The position numbers and the translations under genes are program-made. Shown here piece by piece: positions 4,326 through 48,934 of a stretch of 64,000 nt of DNA (the first letter of the stretch is position 1; the number at the start of each line of letters is the position of its first letter). The stretch lies in contig LR990055.1 in NCBI GenBank assembly GCA_905147135.1, forward strand, positions 3,845,001 through 3,909,000. The letters are read 5' to 3'. The notes under the pieces were generated by a model. It did no database searches, was not told where the DNA came from, and saw only the letters and a list, made by a program, of their open reading frames with translations. This stretch comes from Blastobasis lacticolella. Taxonomy: Eukaryota > Arthropoda > Insecta > Lepidoptera > Blastobasidae.

Positions 4326-4659
4326 TAAAAAACAACAATTTGATCGAGATTTTATAGTTTTAATTGAGTGGCTTTTACCACTTATTACCATGTCTTTTAC
4401 ATTTATGGGTAAATATTTCGTTTAAAATTATTGCTTATTTGTGATATTCTCCCTTTTTCAGCGTCCTTCGCAGTCGGGCTATGTCAATTTGCACAGTACA
4501 AATGACTGCTTAGCAATTCCAGACGGAAGAAGACTTATCGGTCTGTTTTATTTGCAGACTCCTAGTCAGAGTTGGCGCGAGGCTATTTATTGGGCAATAA
4601 ACAACAGTAACTGTACCTTGTTTGACAACAAAGTAGGCAGTTTACTTTTTTAGCGTGTT
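4326..4659. other. Unassigned stretch
   Basis: AT-rich, no repeat family recognised. A 70-codon frame at 4441-4653 shows no known domain, splice context or codon bias, and I do not call it a gene. Confidence 0.4.
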
Positions 4660-6390: not shown

Positions 6391-6889
6391 ATATAAAAAA
6401 ATAAAATAAAATCAAAACCACAGTATGTTAAACTTTTATTTTATTTGAATAATTAAAAATCCGATAAATCAAAATAGAATCCAGCCACACATCTATTCTT
6501 ACAAAGTTTCGCATCGCAATATTCTAGTAGGAAATATGATACTAATACAAAGAATAATTTGTGTTCGCCCGCGACTTAATTCACTTGGACCAGTTTTTCC
6601 GTGTCTCTCCCGTCCCGATTACAGAAACGGCATAACCTACGTGATTGCAATTTTCAATAATATACATACATATATAGTTACATACATGTATACATACATG
6701 TATATTTATCATCTCTTTTTTTGTATGCCTGCTGGAAGAGAATTATTTTTAGAGATAAATAGTGCCTGTTGTCTAATATCTAATTTGTACTATCTCTTTA
6801 ATTTTCTTGTGTACAATAAATTGTTAAATACATAAATATAGTGATAACCCTATGGTAACATTTGGTTAAAAAAGTATTTATATATTTAC
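6391..6889. other. Unassigned stretch
   Basis: AT-rich. Includes a run of ATACATACATGTATAC-type simple sequence near 6660-6710 and a 99-codon chance frame. No domain seen. Confidence 0.4.
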
Positions 6890-7056: not shown

Positions 7057-7640
7057 TAGAGATGTCAAGAATAGTGATTTGCCCAGGTTCTCGGCCAAAG
7101 CCAAATATTCGGCTCCTTGAAATATATTTAGCGCGAATAATTTACTGGTATTTTATTTATCTCCTGTAGCAGTAGTAGCACTGCAGACTAGTAAGAGGCT
7201 ATTTTCAGAAGAAAGTTTTATTTATGACAAAAAGCTAAGCTATCATCAAGGATATGCTGAAAAAATTGCTTTTGATATCGTACCACAGACAGAATCTCAC
7301 TACGATATCACCAGTCCATAACAGTCCTCTGCTGGACTACAGTTTGTTCAATATAATAAAGAGAATTGCCACAGTATCCAAGCTTGATACCTAGGCAGAT
7401 TGAATATCGCAGTGTTGATAATACTCAACAATAACGCTACTATGGAGATAGCCTATACGAGGTATGTATTTGTTTTATACTATGTATAGATAACCATAGA
7501 ATGTCTGATTAGTGGTTAACATAGTTTAAGTACAGCTTTGAATAATATGTTTTCTTTATTTTCTGCGAATACCGAATATTAGAAAAAGTGTCCGAATAAG
7601 CCAAATGCCGAATTGTGGCCGAATATTCGTGGCATCTTTA
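7057..7640 (+). mobile_element. hAT-type deletion derivative
   Basis: Left end TAGAGATGTCAAGAATA, right end the inverse of TAAAGATGCCACGAATA (14 of 17 match). The flanking 8-mers are GGTTTTGA (7049-7056) and GTTTTTGA (7641-7648), differing by one base, as expected of the 8-bp target duplication of hAT elements. Both ends also carry CCAAATATTCGG/CCGAATATTCG motifs. The interior holds only the last 60 codons of the transposase (7142-7321), so the element is an internally deleted, nonautonomous copy. Confidence 0.8.
7142..7321 (+). pseudogene. hAT transposase C-terminal remnant
   Basis: Sixty codons open from TTA to TAA give a C-terminal dimerisation-like segment with SKRLFSEESFIYDKKLS, then AEKIAF. 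This fits the hATC pattern in which S.RLFS is followed by a KR/KK and then an AE.L.F block. The start of the protein, including the BED finger and DDE residues, is absent. It sits inside the inverted-repeat unit 7057-7640. Identification is by motif, from recall of the family. Confidence 0.75.
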
Positions 7641-18589: not shown

Positions 18590-18720
18590 ATTTAACACTT
18601 TATTCTACATTAACAGTATAATTATCACAGATTCTGCAAGATTATGACAAGTACAAGGGCGGTCTTATCGCCAATAGCGATCTCACCAGACAACTTATAT
18701 CGTTTAAGTATAATATTACT
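18590..18720 (-). repeat. LINE 3' tail fragment
   Basis: TTATTTAACACTTTATTCTA then GACAAGTACAAGGGCGGTCT and AGCGATCTCACCAGACAACT. Same type as the tail at 2520-2802 and at 47040-47165. Confidence 0.55.
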
Positions 18721-18781
18721 TTCCCTGTACTATAGGTACTGACAAGTTTTACATTCATTATAAGGCCCGGATTATATCAAG

Positions 18782-18880
18782 CGTCGGCGACGCACCTTGC
18801 GTCGCCGACGCAACCTGCGTCGCCGACGCACCATGCGTCGCCGACGCAACCTGCGTCGCCGACGCAGGTTGCGTCGGGCT
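18782..18880. repeat. GC-rich palindrome array, left arm
   Basis: Tandem units of about 20 bp built on the near-palindrome GCGTCGCCGACGC joined by ACCTT, AACCT or ACCAT. At least five units. Each unit can form its own hairpin as well as pair with the right arm at 25780-26045. Confidence 0.85.
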
Positions 18881-19099
18881 GTCAAACGCTAGACTTCAAC
18901 AGTTTAAACGCACTGCTTTGACTAAAATCGGGCAGAGCGAGAGTCACCATCGATAGTCCTGTGTCCCTTTCTAGTGTTGCCACCATTGTTGATGCAAATT
19001 CCGAATTACTTTTACTATTTGGCGCGGACACCGACCTCAGGGCCAGGCAGAGCCGGACCGGGTGCAATCTGAAGTTTATATTTTCACCAGGGTCCAGCG

Positions 19100-20030
19100 C
19101 AAGCTAACCCTGCTACTCGGAAACTATTAGCCCTAGAACACTAGTTCCTAGAGTGAAATGATAGCATTCCTCGAGATCATCATTTCGTATGACAGCTGTT
19201 AATGTTAAGTATTTTATAAATCGGTACACATTGGTCCTAAAACACTAGCTTCTAGAGAGAAATGATAGTACTTGTTGAGATCTACATTTCGAATGACAGC
19301 TGTCAACGTTAAATCTTTTATAAATCGGTACCCATTGGTCCTAAAACACTAGTTTCCAGAGAGAAATGATAGTACTTGTTGAGATCTACATTTCGAATGA
19401 AAGCTGTCAAAGTTTGAACTGAAATAACTCCTAAACTATTGGTGCTATAACACTCGTTCCTAAAGAAAAATGATAGTGTTCGCCGAGATCTACATTTCGA
19501 ATGACAGCTGTCAATGTTAAATCTTTTATAAATCGGTACCCATTGGTCCTAAAACACTAGTTTCTAGAGAGAAATGATAGTACTTGTTGAGATCTACATT
19601 TCGAATGACAGCTGTCAAAGTTTGAACTGAAATAACGCCTAAACTATTGGTGCTATAACACTCGTTCCTAAAAAAAAAATGATAGTGTTCGCCGAGATCT
19701 ACATTTCGCATGACAGCTGTCAAACTTAGAACTGTTGTAACTCGGAAACGATTGGTCTTAGAACACTAGTTCCTTGAGCAATACGATAGTACTCATCGAG
19801 ATCTACATTTTGGATGACAGTTCTAAGTTTGACAGCTGTCATACGAAATGTAGATCTCGACAAGTACTATCATATTTCTTTAGAAACTAGTGTTCTAGAA
19901 CCAATGGGTTCCGAGTTATAACACATTTAAGTTTGACAGCTGTCACCCGAAATGTAGATATCGACGAGTACTATCACTTCTCTTTAGAAACTAGTGTCAT
20001 AGGATAAATGGTTACCGAACTCTTTTATCT
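19100..20030. repeat. 104-bp satellite array with inverted end
   Basis: Seven direct copies. The CTAG/CTCG landmark recurs at 19141, 19245, 19349, 19453, 19557, 19661 and 19766, a spacing of 104 bp (once 105). Then two copies follow in opposite orientation (about 19815-20030). The unit includes AACTATTGGT, AGAGAAATGATAGTACT, GAGATCTACATTTCGAATGA and the palindrome GACAGCTGTC. Alternate copies differ in the linker (AATCTTTTATAAATCGGT versus TTTGAACTGAAATAAC), pointing to a two-unit higher-order pattern. Confidence 0.9.
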
Positions 20031-20309
20031 GTTTTGTGGAACAAAAAGTCGTAGGTTAATAATTATGTCGACTCGACGTTTGTCGGAGAAACGTTCAGTC
20101 ATAGCCTCCTTCATTTTACAAGCCATTCGCAGAAGTTTGACAACGTCGCATTTTTTAATTTTAGTGAACCTGAAAATTACTGTAAAACTTTCTTCGCGGT
20201 CGTCGTCGTTTAATGTTATTAGTTATTTAAGTGATTAAATATATGCAATAGTTAGATAATATGAAACTGGATAGATTACTGAACTATTTACCTATCTATT
20301 TACTTGCAA

Positions 20310-20570
20310 TAGTATTATGCTACTATTATAAATGCGAAATACAATATGTATAATGCATGTTTGGTTTTGTATGTAATGGATGTTTGTTACTCCTTCACGC
20401 AAAAACTACTGAACGGATTTAAATGCAATTTGGCAGTTATATAGAATATAGCTTAGAATAGCACGTTTGCTATAACTTTTCCCGAAATTTAATGTGATTC
20501 CCGGAAACGGGTACGGAACGTTATAACAGAATTTTATGAGGACGCAGTCGCGGCCAAAAGCTATTATGAA
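20310..20570 (+). repeat. Lepidopteran Helitron-like repeat, decayed
   Basis: CTACTATTATAAATGCGAAA, then ACGCAAAAACTACTGAACGG, ATATAGCTTAGAATAGCACG and CCCGGAAACGGGTACGGAAC. The same order of blocks occurs at 30780-31035. Similar blocks occur in the last part of 51425-52431. The 3' CTAG end is not recognisable here. Confidence 0.55.
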
Positions 20571-21574
20571 ATGAAATAATCTATGCCAGCCAAAATATTG
20601 CCCAATTTATTCACTATTAGGTATAATACATTTTAAACATTCTTATTTAAGTATCTAAGTATATGAAAACTAACTACTTACTTACCTATTGTACCTATCT
20701 ACTTTTTCAACGGTCACATCATCGTCGACAATCAAATGTAACACATGGAATGCGAAATAAAGAAATTTAAATTGAAAGATCGTGGTTTAAAGTAGTTGTA
20801 ATAACTTTCACACTGCGAAAATGTTTGCTGCACGCGAAGGATCCTTCGATGGGACTCCAGCATGCTTGGGGAATAGCAGAAGTCCATTTGTTTAATAGAA
20901 TTACATCTTTTGGAAAGCAAAACTTCGGCACAGCTTCTTGCTCATTTTTAAGGATTAATCATAATTATACTTGCATTTTTCAAATGCTACAACGCCTTTG
21001 CATCTATTAGAGAATGATTACGATTATAAAACAGAATTTGATTTATGAAATAAGTAAAAAACGAACAACAAAAATAGTGAAGGGTTGTTTTTTAAAAATC
21101 GTATTTATCCTATTTTGGCGCAATTATGAATATTTTTGCTTTTATTTACCTTCTTATATGGTCCATACAAACGCGTTTATTTACAGTTTCACCAATATAT
21201 TTTTAATTTATCATCATAAAATTCATAATTTTCCCGCACATTGACATGTAAACAATGAGTAAATCGGTTCACAGCGACGTTGTCGTTCCGTGCTACAGCA
21301 TGGCTTGTAAGATAAAGGAGGCTATGGTTCAGTAGATCAAAAGGTATTTTGACAACTACTTTTCGGATTGTACGGATTACCTCATAATAATACCAAATTT
21401 ACGGTAAATATATTTCTCCAATAATGGCAACACCAAACACAACACTTGTCAATTTAGAATGACGGTGATTATGCCAATAACATTGTGTTTACACTGTTAG
21501 AAAGGGACAAAGGACTATCGATGGTGACTCTCGCTCTGCCCGGTTTTAGTCAAAGCAGTGCGCAGTGGGTAGTA

Positions 21575-21670
21575 AGTCCATGGTTTAAACAGGTATAAAC
21601 GTTCAGATGTCAATAGTCTAAAAGTCCATGGTTTAAACAGGTATAAACATTCAGATGTCAATAGTCTAAA
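21575..21670. repeat. Two-copy 48-bp tandem repeat
   Basis: AGTCCATGGTTTAAACAGGT is repeated after exactly 48 bp, followed each time by ATTCAGATGTCAATAGTCTA (one C/A difference near GTTCAG). A recent small duplication. Confidence 0.9.
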
Positions 21671-21909
21671 GGTCTATATGCACTTGTGCTGCAAAACGCA
21701 GAGACAGGTTTGATGATGGCGTGCACCGTCCATACGAGTGGGTAGCACCACCTGCACCGCATTCAGCCGAACCGGTGCGATGCATAATAAATAATAATAT
21801 TGTTCCGGTGAATCATGTGTTACATGCTGAACATGGTTCGATTTTGATAATATGAATATTTCAGCTTTCAGACATAGGTGTATGAGATTTAAAAAGTAAT
21901 ACTGTCTTA

Positions 21910-22194
21910 GCGACACAGGGCTAGGACAGGGCGAGGACGCGTCGCAGACACGACTTGAAACATACAGAAAAGACGAGGCAAGGGCGCGCCGCGGGCGAGA
22001 GCAGGGGTGCGGGCGGGGCGCGGGAGCCGGGCCTCGCCCGCAGCGCTTGCTGTCCTTGTCTTGCCTACGCTCTTGACTTATCCGCGACGGCGCCGCGTCC
22101 TTGCCCTGTCTTTTCTGTATGTTTTAAGTCGCGTCCGCGTCCCGTCTGTGCCCTGTCCGCGACGTGTCTGAGTCTTTTCTGTGTGGCCGCTCGC
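21910..22194. mobile_element. 285-bp GC-rich foldback unit, possible TTA duplication
   Basis: TTA lies on both sides (21907-21909 and 22195-22197). The outermost inverted match is only GCGA. Inside, CTTGAAACATACAGAAAAGAC at the left and GTCTTTTCTGTATGTTTTAAG at the right pair with two mismatches, within arms rich in GGACAGGGC/GGACGCG and their inverses. Very GC-rich compared with the flanks. Nested in the 7.3-kb element. Confidence 0.55.
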
Positions 22195-23098
22195 TTAGGT
22201 ATGTGTTTGTTGACGCAATTGATTTCATACAAGGAAGAACGCTTTATCGCAAATGGTTACGTGTATGAATAAAAAAAGTCATTTATCTTCGAACTGTGAC
22301 GAACTGTTTCTTAGACTAACATATGGGGTCGGCTTAAAAAAATAATATGACATACAAACTCTATTTAAAGCCTTGTCCTGCCTAACACTACACATCTTTG
22401 ACTGAAGTAACGCGCAATATCGCGTCGCAGCAGTGCGTTCAGAATAGACGTTGCAGTGCAGTTGCCGTGCCGCTGCCGCGTCGCGCAGCGTAAGTGCGTG
22501 TTCACCTTTATTAGCACTTTTGAATCCGCGACCCTAAGAAGATATGCTGTACATCCATTTAACACAGAAAGACATTTGTATGGCCAATTTCATACCCATT
22601 TTAACAGACTCAGAAAGTACCTATTTTATATCCGCTTTTATAAAAGCTACAGAAAGTACACAATTAGAAAAGATAACCTAAATCTACAAATAAAAAAAAT
22701 TCTCAACACAAAAAACTGTAGAATATTATCGATGAAAAACCAACCATCTGAACATGTTACCTAATGCTGTCTGTTTGTCAATGCGTTTGTGCGCGCTTAT
22801 CTCAGGAACGGCTTAAATGATTTAAGTGCAGTTTCAATAATGTATAATTGTTGTAAGCTTCACTTAAATGTAGTGTTTGTGAAATGTTTTATTTAGATAA
22901 AAAGTAAATTAATAAAGATATATCAATTTAAACTCATTTTGTTCTATAAAAATGCTGTTTTGTTAAATTGGCTGAAACTTTAGGCATCTAAGTAGATGTT
23001 GACTGAAAATTTAAATATAAACAAAAAATGACTGTTTCAGAGATTTTGACTTTTCCGATATAAGTTGATCTCAGCTCTATATTATCAATCAAAAATAT

Positions 23099-23300
23099 TA
23101 AATAAATATACTTGAACAATTCACACAGCGCCATCTTGCCTCAAAGTAAGCAAAGCTTGTGTTATGGATGCTAGATAACTAAACTTACTTACATATTTTT
23201 TAAATACATACTCATGATAAGTACATATAACACCTAGACCCGATAACATATATTAAAATTCATCATTTCTGAATCGAACCCAGGATCTCTGGGTGGCAGA
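23099..23300 (-). mobile_element. SINE-A copy, decayed head
   Basis: AATTCACACAGCGCCATCTT, AAGCAAAGCTTGTGTTATGG, CACCTAGACCCGATAACATA, then a damaged B box (TGAATCGAACCCAGGATCTC). Confidence 0.7.
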
Positions 23301-23699
23301 CAGAAACAGGATTTAACTTAGTGATGCTGATGTTTTGTGGCGTTTCAAATCCACTTAAAAAGAAGTCAGTCAGATCAAGGGGGATGAGGTTATGTAGAAG
23401 ACTACCATAGGCCAGCGCCAGCGTATACTCCTTTAAGATCTAAACTTTTAAGTGAACATGGCCTACTAGCGCAGTCTTATAACCAGTTACAATGAGTGCC
23501 TTTTATGCTTTTTGCGGAATTTGACCCCATAGAAACTATGTAACATATTCAGCAAAATAAATCTGAACAGTAAAATATAACCTTGAAAGTCATTACCTGT
23601 GGAACCAGTGTAGAACCAGTTCACCTGATATCCTTTTAAGTTTATCACAGATTTAAGTGTGATTATTTTCATGGGGAATATTTTTGCATATGATAGAAT

Positions 23700-23749
23700 G
23701 AGTTGAAGATGAGTATTTAACGCGAACAAAGTCGCGGGCAACCGCTAGT
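23700..23749 (+). repeat. Helitron-like 3' terminus
   Basis: CGCGAACAAAGTCGCG can form a hairpin and is followed by GGCAACCGCTAG and T, i.e. a CTAG end after a short stem. The start of the element was not found. Confidence 0.55.
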
Positions 23750-23801
23750 AATTAAGTTGGATATTTTTGCAAACTTTTTACTTTGCAATACTCAATGGTA
23801 G

Positions 23802-23918
23802 GTGCCACAAACTTACCCGACACGGTGACGGCGTCGCTGTTGTTGACAAACAAAATGACATTTTTAAATGGCGACACTTAGTTCAGCTTTTAGCCACCGG
23901 GCCAGATAAGTTTGTGGC
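23802..23918. mobile_element. MITE-F copy, full length
   Basis: GTGCCACAAACTTACCCGAC at the left, GGGCCAGATAAGTTTGTGGC at the right, with GACGGCGTCGCTGTTGTTGA and AATGGCGACACTTAGTTC inside. The best-preserved terminal inversion of the family together with 29519-29632. Confidence 0.75.
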
Positions 23919-24194
23919 GAAATTTTAGTGACAATGACTTGTCACTAAAAGCTTCCTCCAAACAGGGGCGATCTGTAGTTCTTAAAGGGAACACAGCAGA
24001 AAACCCACGACGCGTTCTGCAAGGGGCTGGCCGTGACATCCCCCTTCGCTGCACAGGTCATACATGTGATTATTATTATGATAGGCCAGTGCGTTGACTA
24101 TCTTTCGGAGGTTGGGCATACCTCTGACCGGTGTGACTTGGGTGTAGTTTATTATTATTAAGTATAATTATTTTCTTTTTTTTTTGTCAATGGC

Positions 24195-24340
24195 TTGATC
24201 TAGAGGCGACTGTTAACTATAAATCTGAGGGCGATAGCTGCCAGCCGGATGCGGAAGCACAGGACAGGATGTTGTGGAGATCTCGGAAGGCGGCATATGC
24301 TCAACATGGGTGTCTTTTGGCTGATATGATGAACGTCTGT
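24195..24340 (+). repeat. LINE 3' end fragment
   Basis: GCCAGCCGGATGCGGAAGCA, GACAGGATGTTGTGGAGATC and CAACATGGGTGTCTTTTGGC. It parallels 33648-33745 (CAGCTGGATGCGGAAGGTAC ... GGAGATCTCTGG ... GCAGTGGGCGTCG). This is the 3' end of a LINE, not held in one frame. Confidence 0.5.
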
Positions 24341-24547
24341 ACGCGGGCGCATTCAGTCCAATAGTACGCGACCGCATCGCCCACGCCTGTGTGGGGTCAG
24401 GGTCTATTATGGATAGCCCATAGAGTTACTATACGAGGTATATAACTCTATGGATATATCTTGTGATATCCAGTCTCCCAGTCTCTATCCAAACTCATTT
24501 TGCAGTATATAAACTCCTTGTCTTGTTGATATAAAAACCCTGCTTTA

Positions 24548-25718
24548 GTGCGGGCACAGACCTATGGAAAAGGTCAGGGACGGGCCCAACCGGCACACCT
24601 ACCGGGCCGGACATTCTTAAAATTTTCTTAGTCGTTATCAAGCGCTTGCCGGGAAAGGTTAACGGGTAGAAATAGATGACGAATTAATGTGCATCGCCTT
24701 ACTGCTTGGCGCTGAAAACCTACAAAAAAGGGAAAGATGGTAGGTTGGATGAGGAGAGGAAAAAAATTCGGGTAGGCAGTATCAGTCTACTGAACTACTG
24801 TACCTACTCGTCCATATCTACATTTCGAATGACGGCTGTTAAACTTAAAGCCGTTATAACTCTGATTCTATTGGTCTTAGAACACTAGTCTCTAAAAAGA
24901 ATTATATCACTCGTCGAGATACACATTTAAAGTAACTGTTGCAAATTGAAAACTGTTATAACTTGAGAACCATAGGTCCTAGAAGAATAGTTTCTATAGA
25001 AAAATGATATTAGGTACTCGTCGAAATCTACGTTTTGTGAGAGAGACGTTAAATTTAAAACTGTCATTCGAAATGTAGAATTCGACGAGTACTATCATAT
25101 ATCTTTAGGGACTAGTGTTCCAGGACCAATAGTTTCCGAATAGAAAGAGTCACCTTGGGGCTGGACCCAGTTCAAGCCTCAGGCTAAACAATTCATGTAT
25201 TCACGAAGACTGATGACAGTAGACTGATACGTATTTTTTTCTCGTCTTCATCTAACATTAAACTTCACATCAACATATCTATTTACTTCTTGCCACGCAA
25301 TGTCTTTGAGATTACGGTTGTGATAATCCTTGTTTTTTATGTTTCAACATAGAAATTTTTGCCCTGCCAAAGTAATGGACTCAGGGTCAACCATAGAGGA
25401 ATATACCTTTCCCAGGTATACCAATCTCTTTGATAATTACAGATCCGCCCCAATGTCCACGACGATTCCACGAATGGGCCCGGCCCGGAAAGCTTACGGT
25501 CTGTATATGCCGATTATAAGAAGATTATATGCAAGGACGGTTCGGACGTTTCAGGACGGTTGAAAGTTTTAACCGGGTGCGCTCTCCGGGCGTCTATATG
25601 TGTGTGACGGCTAGTACATTTTCGATGAAAATAATATGGCCTTCACGTTAAACCCGGCCCGGCCCTGATCGGCAGGTCTGGCCCGGCCCGGCCCTGACCG
25701 GTAGGTCTGTGCCCGGCC
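24548..25718. mobile_element. 1.17-kb GC-armed element with TTA duplication
   Basis: Left end GTGCGGGCACAGACCTATGG, right end inverted GGCCGGGCACAGACCTACCG (15 of the first 17 match). TTA precedes the left end (24545-24547) and follows the right end (25719-25721). The right arm is a tandem of GGCCCGGCCCTGACCGG and GGCCCGGCCCTGATCGG units. A part of the 104-bp satellite (24810-25145) lies inside. Nested in the 7.3-kb composite. No coding remnant. TTA suggests the PIF/Harbinger type. Confidence 0.65.
24810..25145. repeat. Satellite (104-bp family), palindromic arrangement
   Basis: About two diverged direct units (CATATCTACATTTCGAATGA, CTATTGGTCTTAGAACACTA) followed by one inverted unit (CGAAATGTAGAATTCGACGA, GGGACTAGTGTTCCAGGACC). 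More diverged than the array at 19100-20030. Confidence 0.8.
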
Positions 25719-25735
25719 TTAGAATTCTTGACGCA

Positions 25736-26045
25736 TCTTGTCAACTTAAAATTATATGAACTTCTAATGCGCGCGCCGACGCAACCTGCGTTTTACCTGC
25801 GTCGCCGACGCAACCTGCGTTTTACCTGCGTCGGCGCGCGCATTTGAAAATCATACAATTTTGAGTTGACAGCTTAACGAAAGATGCGTCGCCGACGCAG
25901 GCAGCGTCGATAACGCAGGTTGCGTCGGCGACGCAGGTAAAACGCAGGTTGCGTCGGCGCGCGCATTAGAAGTTCATACAATTTTGAGTTGACAGCATAA
26001 CGCAAGTTGCGTCGCCGACGCAACGTGCGTCGCCGACGCTTGATA
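25736..26045. repeat. GC-rich palindrome array, right arm
   Basis: GCGCGCGCCGACGCAACCTG with GCGTTTTACCTGCGTCGCCG units, then the same text inverted around 25840-25990. GCATTAGAAGTTCATACAAT at 25964 mirrors AATTATATGAACTTCTAATG at 25750. The arm is therefore itself a foldback of about 300 bp, more complex than the left arm. Confidence 0.8.
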
Positions 26046-26056
26046 TAATCCGCGCC

Positions 26057-26800
26057 TAAGTCACATAACAAACATCAGTTTAGTTAATTACTTTAGTTTA
26101 AATTCTCCGCAAAGTAGACTAAACAAGTAAATGAATTGGCAAGGGTAACTCCCAAGCCCTGGATTCTAATGGATTAGTCCAACATTTACAGGACGTGACC
26201 TCTGCGCTCTTTGTGACTATTGTGACTAACCTAGGCACAGACGCAGGGTTAGTGCTAATGTACAAGTTTCAATTCAGTTCGTTCAATTGTTTACTTCAGT
26301 CAAAACCATTCGAGCTTAGTAAGGTTTTGTTCTAGAATTTTTATTAGAAATTAAATATTCAGCTCTTGTATTCTACATACATATTTATATGCAGTCACGC
26401 CTTTTTCTTGTCTGGGTACGCAGATATAGCATAGTTCCACTTGCTACGGTCCTGACATATTATCTCTCTCGCCTCTTCCGAATTCTCGAACGGTTTATTA
26501 GGGTAGATACTTTTGACCAAAGGCCCTATTTTTGATGTATGACACTGATTTTCCATATTTTTCAACTGTTCGCTTTTTAATAGTAAAATATATGATATTG
26601 AAAACCGTTCGATTCGAGGGGAGCGGTTCAAAAAATAAACCCCTGATCCTCGATCGTGATACATACGTCTCGTAACGTTGTTTTTAATCGATCCCTATGG
26701 CAATTAAAGAACGATACTGAACACAGACTTCAATAAAGTTTTTCCATTACTCTGTTGAAAGTATTATTCCAAGGATTCCCTGATCGCTAATACCGCTGCA
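26057..26800. other. Mostly unassigned; possible LINE tail at 26395-26500
   Basis: The minus strand near 26395-26470 reads EEAREIICQDRSKWNYAISA, a pattern (A-x-D/Q-R-x-x-W) reminiscent of LINE tails. GTTCCACTTGCTACGGTCCT recurs almost exactly near 41765. Everything else is AT-rich and unassigned. Confidence 0.4.
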
Positions 26801-40774: not shown

Positions 40775-41300
40775 GTTTGGTTCTAGAACACTAGTTTCTA
40801 AAAATAAATGCTGTTACTCGTAGAAATCTACATTTTGGATGGCACCTGTCAAACTTAAAACTGTAAGAACTCTGAAACTATTGGTGCTAGAATACTAATT
40901 CCTAAAGAGAAATGATAGTACTCGTCGAGATCTACATTTTGGATGGCACCTGTCAAACTTAATACTGTAATAACTCTTAAACTATCGCTTCTAGAACACT
41001 AGTTACTGAAGAGAAATGATAGTGCTCGTCGAGATCTACATTTCGGTTGACAGCTGTCAAACTTAATACTGTAATAACTCTGAAACTATCGCTCCTTGAA
41101 CACTAGTTCCTGAAGAGAAATGATAGTCGAGATCTTCATTTCGGTTGACAGCTGTCAATCTTAAACCTGTAATAACTCTGAAACTATAGGCCTTAAAACG
41201 CTTGTTCCAGAACAGCAAATACTTATAGATATCGACGGGCACTATCATTTCTTTTTAGGATCTAGTTTTCTAAGAGTAATGGTTTCCGAGTTATTTAAGT
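40775..41300. repeat. 104-bp family satellite, second locus
   Basis: About four direct copies (AGAACACTAGTTTCTAAA, AGAAATGATAGTACTCGTCG, GATCTACATTTTGGATGGCA, GTTGACAGCTGTCAAACTTA) and then one inverted copy (CGGGCACTATCATTTCTTTT ... GTAATGGTTTCCGAG). Same unit as the array at 19100-20030 in a different host element. Confidence 0.85.
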
Positions 41301-48272: not shown

Positions 48273-48450
48273 TTCTGAATTGACAAAATAATGCAATAAT
48301 TCTACCTTTTTTCGCGAAATTTATTGTTTATTTCCTAAAAGAATAACAGCGTAAATGTGAATGGCGTTTTTGGTCAGAACATTCATAAGCTTGTAATGAT
48401 GTTAGAGGTCTCGTTGTTTTGATTAAATGTAGGAAATATAAATATAACAG

Positions 48451-48638
48451 AGGGCTTAGTGTGAGTTTCGCTTGGATTTTACTTTACTATCGCGTTTGCG
48501 TTTACGTCGAAATTAGTATGAAGAAAAAACTTCATTAACGTACCACTAGACGGCGCTATACATTTTTTCATACAAATTTTCACGTAAACGCAAACGCGAT
48601 AGTAAAGTAAAATCGAAGCGAAACTCACACTAAGCCCT
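48451..48638. mobile_element. 188-bp MITE with about 58-bp inverted termini
   Basis: Left arm AGGGCTTAGTGTGAGTTTCG, TGGATTTTACTTTACTATCG, CGTTTGCGTTTACGT; right arm its inverse with few differences (ACGTAAACGCAAACGCGATA ... CTCACACTAAGCCCT). CAG borders both sides (48448-48450, 48639-48641), perhaps a 3-bp duplication. The central 70 bp has ACTAGACGGCGCTATACATT. Confidence 0.85.
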
Positions 48639-48934
48639 CAGGTAGGTGGTAGTATTCCGATAAGCCTGAGTACCATTGCCTTATCTTTTTCTGCCGCCAA
48701 GCAACAATGCTTATATTATTGTGTTTTGGTTTGATGGATAAGGTAGCCAGCGCAATTACAGGCATGAGGCATTACATCTTAGTGCTCACAGTGACGGTGA
48801 GATGTTATGGGCGACCAGGTGGGTTGTGTGCTCGTTTGTGATTGCGAAGCATAAAAATATTTGCCGATACAACATTTTTTACTATTGTAAAAGTAGGTCA
48901 GATTTTTTTTTCTTTTTTTACTTTTTGACTAGCC

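What the first reader, a model, noticed from the sequence alone, without database searches (positions are those of the whole stretch)
18764..26056. 7.3-kb inverted-repeat composite with TAA duplications and GC-palindrome arms
Two ends more than 7 kb apart match in 30 of 31 bases when inverted, and both are flanked by TAA. The termini run straight into tandem near-palindromes (GCGTCGCCGACGC). Such near-identity suggests a fairly recent event, yet there is no transposase. Foldback-like architecture combined with a PIF/Harbinger-type 3-bp target duplication is unusual.
Basis: partly seen in the sequence, partly recalled or inferred. Interest (0 to 1): 0.75.

Follow-up and report, generated by a model that had tools for sequence, protein, structure and literature searches.

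The report
Large non-coding jumping gene, repeatedly copied
The 7.3-kb stretch is one copy of a young, high-copy mobile DNA element with mirror-image ends and no detected gene for its own movement enzyme, an unusually large example of a known class of borrowed-enzyme transposons.

Summary
Window 18764-26056 (7293 bp) is one transposition unit flanked by TAA, with inverted ends matching 30 of 31 bases. It is not a coincidence of neighbours: in its 577-Mb genome, 257 exact TWA-flanked ends form 72 facing pairs (67 left-right, 5 right-right; random placement 0.75), and 64 of 72 carry the same 3-bp duplication. Lengths cluster at about 6.6, 7.3 and 8.05 kb. Four of 19 insertions tested have related empty sites with a single TWA. 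Twelve copies of the 7.3-kb class differ by 0.58% on average, though they were picked for identical left ends. No DDE_Tnp_4 transposase was found in the copies read. Best reading: a large non-autonomous, PIF/Harbinger-type DNA transposon moved in trans, with arms of tandem GCGTCGSCGACGC palindromes. Short relatives exist, including a 318-bp element that is little more than arms. No autonomous partner was found: of 269 mapped ends, none has a listed DDE_Tnp_4 match on its inner side within 15 kb. Harbinger membership therefore rests on duplication and ends. New variant of a known kind.

The parts
18761..18763 (.). left copy of 3-bp target site duplication, TAA
   Evidence: sequence; equal duplications in 17 of 19 copies read with both ends, window included, and in 64 of 72 facing pairs genome-wide
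18764..26056 (+). whole transposition unit, 7293 bp
   Evidence: 18 of 20 fetched copies show both ends within 10 kb
18764..18820 (+). left terminal inverted repeat (GGCCCGGATTATATCAAGCG...), 53 of 57 bases match the right end
18781..18876 (+). left arm: five GCGTCGSCGACGC near-palindromes at 18-bp spacing
18909..18973 (+). left arm of an inner 65-bp inverted repeat (63 of 65), possible older nested element
19117..20018 (.). about 7 direct and 2 inverted units of a 104-bp repeat; unit number varies between copies
21498..21562 (-). right arm of the inner 65-bp inverted repeat
24805..25139 (.). further 104-bp-related units
25739..25994 (.). hairpin within the right arm (83-bp arms, 98% complementary); with the right end it aligns, with gaps, along most of the 318-bp short relative L047
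26000..26056 (-). right terminal inverted repeat (GGCGCGGATTATATCAAGCG...)
26057..26059 (.). right copy of target site duplication, TAA

Best explanation
A non-autonomous cut-and-paste DNA transposon of PIF/Harbinger type. Shown: fixed paired ends, 3-bp TWA duplication on insertion, empty sites, near-identical copies spread over many contigs, no coding capacity found. Inferred: a PIF/Harbinger transposase with its Myb/SANT-like partner, encoded elsewhere, recognises the 20-bp ends and perhaps the palindrome arrays as multiplied binding sites, and moves the whole 6.6-8 kb unit in trans. The interior is passenger DNA (nested repeats, 104-bp arrays). The 7.3-kb and 6.6-kb classes look like two internal-deletion derivatives of an about 8.05-kb form, each amplified (inference).
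For: Left 85 bases: 40 of 532 candidates scored, all 40 (the window among them) at 99-100%. 714 ends at up to 2 mismatches, reversed-pattern control 0. 72 facing pairs among 257 exact ends, 64 with equal TWA; random placement mean 0.75, maximum 6; left-right pairs on 25 contigs. 17 of 19 copies read with both ends have equal duplications (16 TWA, one CAA); the two exceptions are explained by their empty sites. Related empty sites with a single TWA for 4 of 19 insertions tested: L009, L011, L014, L019. Mean pairwise difference 0.58% among 12 copies, almost unresolved tree. The same genome holds two fetched DDE_Tnp_4 loci with TTA on both sides, L041 and L042; L041 also has a MADF/BESS protein and ends that begin GGCCCTCC.
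Against: No transposase-bearing element with these ends was found. Of 269 distinct ends, one lies within 15 kb of one of the 150 listed DDE_Tnp_4 matches and it faces away; chance alone would give about 2. Of the 257 exact TWA-flanked ends, one (C24:8610812) is that close, also facing away. Eight DDE loci lack these ends at up to 5 substitutions in 4-6.5 kb. 113 of 257 ends have no exact TWA-flanked partner, 83 of them right-type. Eight of 72 pairs have unequal duplications. The ends searched genome-wide were required to carry TWA, so cannot show how often other duplications occur.
Confidence: 0.82

Rival explanations
1. Composite origin: two neighbouring short palindrome-armed elements (MITEs) were mobilised by their outer ends, carrying the DNA between them; this composite then amplified. 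A sub-hypothesis about how the unit arose, compatible with the best explanation.
For: A 318-bp relative with TAA on both sides consists of little but arms (L047). Bases 1-273 of it align with 317 bases of the unit's right end: 140 of 157 aligned bases match in its first 160, 56 of 74 in 161-235, 35 of 38 in 236-273. That right end contains its own 83-bp inverted repeat. Short right-right elements of 318-1135 bp exist with equal duplications (4 of the 5 right-right pairs).
Against: The middle of that alignment is gapped and weak. No second recognisable end remains on the inner side of the right arm; the left arm is only about 115 bp; growth of one element by nested insertion explains the same data.
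Confidence: 0.3
2. Foldback/Galileo/Tetris-type element: long arms of tandem repeats are the defining machinery, moved by a transposase of another superfamily.
For: Palindrome arrays (4-5 per arm) in both arms of all 19 copies read with both ends, strong folding, z -20 for the right arm and -8.6 for the left; variable tandem units resemble Tetris (PMC4079207, passages read).
Against: Terminal inverted repeat only about 57 bp; the TWA duplication points to PIF/Harbinger.
Confidence: 0.1
3. Coincidence of two neighbouring short elements, each with its own partner.
For: Short relatives with the same ends exist.
Against: 67 left-right pairs, 53 of them at 6.2-8.5 kb, near-identical interiors in the fetched copies, empty sites.
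Confidence: 0.01

Closest known systems
PIF/Harbinger non-autonomous elements (mPing, Tourist-like MITEs, Harbinger3N_DR)
   Same: 3-bp TAA/TTA duplication, terminal inverted repeats, no coding capacity; mobilisation of mPing in trans by two proteins (PMC2836001, search listing and passages read)
   Different: 6.6-8 kb, where mPing is well under 1 kb (recalled); GC-rich palindrome arrays and 104-bp arrays inside; no autonomous partner identified here
Tetris / Galileo foldback transposons of Drosophila
   Same: Tandem repeats inside the arms, variable unit number, no transposase copy found for Tetris; extra transposase binding sites discussed for such repeats (PMC4079207, passages read)
   Different: Short terminal inverted repeat here; 3-bp TWA duplication; many near-identical, structurally complete units (three complete Tetris copies were reported)
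Helicoverpa PIF/Harbinger MITEs (HelPIF families)
   Same: Non-autonomous TWA-duplicating elements in insects (PMC9033116, passages read)
   Different: Those were sought only up to 800 bp, so a large element like this would be outside that survey

Membership tests
PIF/Harbinger superfamily (non-autonomous member) | 3-bp TWA target duplication | tested here: met
   Of 19 copies read with both ends, chosen without regard to flanks, 16 have equal TWA, one equal CAA, two unequal; 64 of 72 facing pairs equal (only TWA-flanked ends were searched there); single TWA in the 4 empty sites found
PIF/Harbinger superfamily (non-autonomous member) | terminal inverted repeats | tested here: met
   53/57
PIF/Harbinger superfamily (non-autonomous member) | ends shared with an element encoding DDE_Tnp_4 transposase and Myb/SANT protein | tested here: inconclusive
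   None found in 8 fetched DDE loci or on the inner side of 269 mapped ends against 150 listed matches; 358 first-look candidates, 150 scored, and 714 ends exist at up to 2 mismatches, so the search is not exhaustive
PIF/Harbinger superfamily (autonomous) | encodes DDE_Tnp_4 | tested here: not met
   tblastn of 8 DDE domains against L009-L036 and the window: no hit at E 0.01; L045 and L046: one hit, E 0.052; L047: none at 0.1
MITE | short length (up to about 800 bp) | tested here: not met
   7293 bp; but the relative L047 is 318 bp
Foldback transposon | long terminal inverted repeats | tested here: not met
   ungapped inverted match of 57-58 bp; arms are palindromic rather than long inverted copies of each other
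PIF/Harbinger superfamily (non-autonomous member) | mobilised by Harbinger proteins | not testable with these tools
   needs an excision assay

The most novel reading that the evidence does not exclude
A composite ('macro') Harbinger-type transposon: outer ends of two palindrome-armed MITEs became a unit able to carry 6-8 kb of passenger DNA and amplify, because arrays of palindromes multiply binding sites for the transposition proteins. This would show that MITE pairs can mobilise multi-kilobase cargo at high copy number in an animal.
Probability: 0.22. Interest if true: 0.6.

Novelty: new variant of a known kind. Interest (0 to 1): 0.4.

Why it matters
MITE success is often credited to small size. 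Here a family without detected coding capacity has 53 left-right pairs of 6.2-8.5 kb with exact TWA-flanked ends and recent activity in its 7.3-kb class, so length has not prevented amplification. The family offers a graded series (318 bp, about 1 kb, 6.6, 7.3, 8.05 kb) with the same ends, in which the role of arm repeats and interior length can be tested directly.

Tried and rejected
ORFs of 377 and 367 aa in the long copy L021 and 788 aa in L025 look like reverse transcriptases of nested LINEs (RVT_1 confirmed for the 377-aa one; the other two judged by eye). L032 was a candidate for a different, perhaps coding, element with the same end: three of its ORFs have no meaningful Pfam match (best E 0.062, below cut-off) and the sequence next to its end is a dispersed repeat, so it looks truncated. 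The same query for L033 did not complete. Rfam: no match at gathering score in window 18700-26100. Papers: the end and palindrome sequences are not printed in the held library; searches for Harbinger with Myb-like protein, subterminal and TWA, and for Harbinger MITEs with internal tandem repeats in Lepidoptera, gave nothing; a search with foldback and tandem repeats gave one paper, on a mosquito Mutator-like element, seen as a listing only; the search for nonautonomous Harbinger, terminal inverted repeats and insect showed no hit for the first term in the 10 papers listed of 379. The 12.6% distance of L018 is probably inflated by misalignment of its rearranged segment; its local matches are 91-99.6%. 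Six of 18 aligned copies (L010, L013, L017, L018, L020, L028) were left out of the 0.58% figure as other size classes or more diverged; L027, kept, is a 7.3-kb-class copy with a nested insertion. The fetched copies were the best matches to the window's left end, so 0.58% is biased towards young copies. The species was not identified; 'insect, perhaps lepidopteran' is inference.

Full report
The unit. Window 18764-26056 begins GGCCCGGATTATATCAAGCG and ends with the inverse of GGCGCGGATTATATCAAGCG; TAA lies directly outside both ends. The inverted match is 30 of 31 and 53 of 57; chance expectation in 64 kb about 1.8e-7 on an independent-base model. Both arms carry GCGTCGSCGACGC near-palindromes, ten in the window and all in the unit.

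It is a repeated family. Of 532 candidate places for the left 85 bases, 40 were scored and all 40, the window among them, matched at 99-100%. The 20-base end occurs 714 times at up to two mismatches, the reversed control pattern never. Eighteen of 20 show the opposite end within the fetched stretch, and interiors match the window, mostly at 97-99% over kilobases.

Pairs and duplications. Exact ends preceded by TAA or TTA were mapped in four searches (76, 84, 49 and 48 places). Among these 257 ends, on 30 contigs, 72 adjacent facing pairs lie within 20 kb: 67 left-right (on 25 contigs), 5 right-right, no left-left; 500 random placements gave 0.75 pairs on average, at most 6. Duplications are equal in 64 of 72 (59 of 67 left-right, 5 of 5 right-right). 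Of the 67 left-right pairs, 53 are 6.2-8.5 kb long: 18 at 6585-6709, 14 at 7202-7390, 5 at 7959-8076 bp, the rest between; the extremes of all 67 are 170 bp and 11,971 bp. 113 ends have no exact partner (83 right, 30 left). Ends with mismatches or other duplications were not in these searches, so partners can be missed.

Empty sites. Joining the flanks of 19 copies and comparing with all held sequence gave related unoccupied copies for 4 of 19: L009, L011, L014 and L019, each with one TWA. The other 15 gave no spanning match, as expected where flanks are not repeated in the held sequence. The empty sites also explain the two unequal duplications among the 19: L019 by a base change, L014 by a lost T.

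Age and subfamilies. Outside the tandem regions, 12 copies differ by 0.29-0.88% (mean 0.58%), with an almost unresolved tree; these copies were selected by identical left ends, so older copies are under-represented. With a butterfly mutation rate near 2.9e-9 per site and generation (recalled, not looked up) this is of the order of a million generations. Five fetched copies carry about 775-800 further bases (about 1.6 kb in L010) around window 24329-24337, with the short stretch AACGTC on both sides. The 6.6-kb copy L045 has that segment but lacks element positions 1337-2563. The simplest order is an 8.05-kb form with two deletion derivatives (inference).

No transposase found. The unit's longest stop-to-stop frame is 149 codons, within the range of single-base shuffles. 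Eight of 13 frames of 75 codons or more were scanned, without a Pfam match. Eight DDE_Tnp_4 domains from this genome have no tblastn match in the window or L009-L036, nor at E 0.01 in L045-L047. Large ORFs in L021 and L025 are LINE-like nested insertions. PF13359 gives 152 matches from 150 scored candidates of 358; the 150 listed were used here. Of 269 mapped ends, one lies within 15 kb of a listed match, against about 2 expected by chance, and it faces away. With the ends added, the 257 TWA-flanked ends include one so close, C24:8610812, also facing away.

Relatives. Short elements with the same ends and equal duplications exist: L047 (318 bp, little more than arms), L029 (995 bp), and two of 1.1 kb not fetched. 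A 728-bp one, L030, has GTA on one side. Some contain 104-bp repeats. Bases 1-273 of L047 align with 317 bases of the unit's right end, well at both ends of that stretch and weakly in the middle, and the right arm is itself a strong hairpin (z -20), so a short element may be the origin of one or both arms. L046, a right-right pair of 7857 bp, has the large interior with right-type ends on both sides.

Mechanism. Movement as a unit with a 3-bp TWA duplication is shown by pairs, duplications and empty sites. That a PIF/Harbinger transposase does it is inferred: the superfamily makes a 3-bp duplication, usually TAA for mPing, needs ORF1 plus transposase and mobilises mPing in trans (PMC2836001, passages), and this genome holds a two-gene Harbinger with TTA on both sides and ends beginning GGCCC, L041. 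That the palindromes are binding sites is inference, by analogy with extra binding sites discussed for Galileo and Tetris (PMC4079207, passages).

Verdict. A real, young, large non-autonomous Harbinger-type family with foldback-like arms; membership is provisional until the partner is found.

Noticed in passing
contig C8 of the window's genome: 79 of the 150 listed DDE_Tnp_4 matches lie on this one contig, 3.8% of the genome, whereas only 8 of 269 ends of the present family do. Possibly a sex chromosome or a TE-rich chromosome.
   Followed up: no
L041:1721-4433: Compact two-gene Harbinger: DDE_Tnp_4 and MADF/BESS proteins, stop-to-stop frames of 302 codons each on opposite strands with overlapping ends, between inverted ends of about 32 bp that begin GGCCCTCC, TTA outside.
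   Followed up: partly
window 40777-41300: A second array of the 104-bp repeat, outside the element; no match to the element's end there.
   Followed up: partly
window 18909-18973 and 21498-21562: Inner 65-bp inverted repeat, 63 of 65 complementary, starting CGCACTG; may be an older nested transposon. The same stretch occurs in L034.
   Followed up: partly
window 23092-23269 (element 4329-4506): SINE-like dispersed repeat with about a dozen further matches elsewhere in the window.
   Followed up: no
window 48448-48642: Palindromic repeat of about 195 bp; a relative of it was the target of L009.
   Followed up: no
flanks of 19 copies: Weak bias beyond the duplication: G in 10 of 19 and T in 10 of 19 at the third and fourth bases to the right.
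   Followed up: no
C9:14718707-14722963 and C9:14740389-14744683: Two left-right pairs of about 4.25 kb, 21.7 kb apart, with the same unequal duplications, probably a segmental duplication.
   Followed up: no
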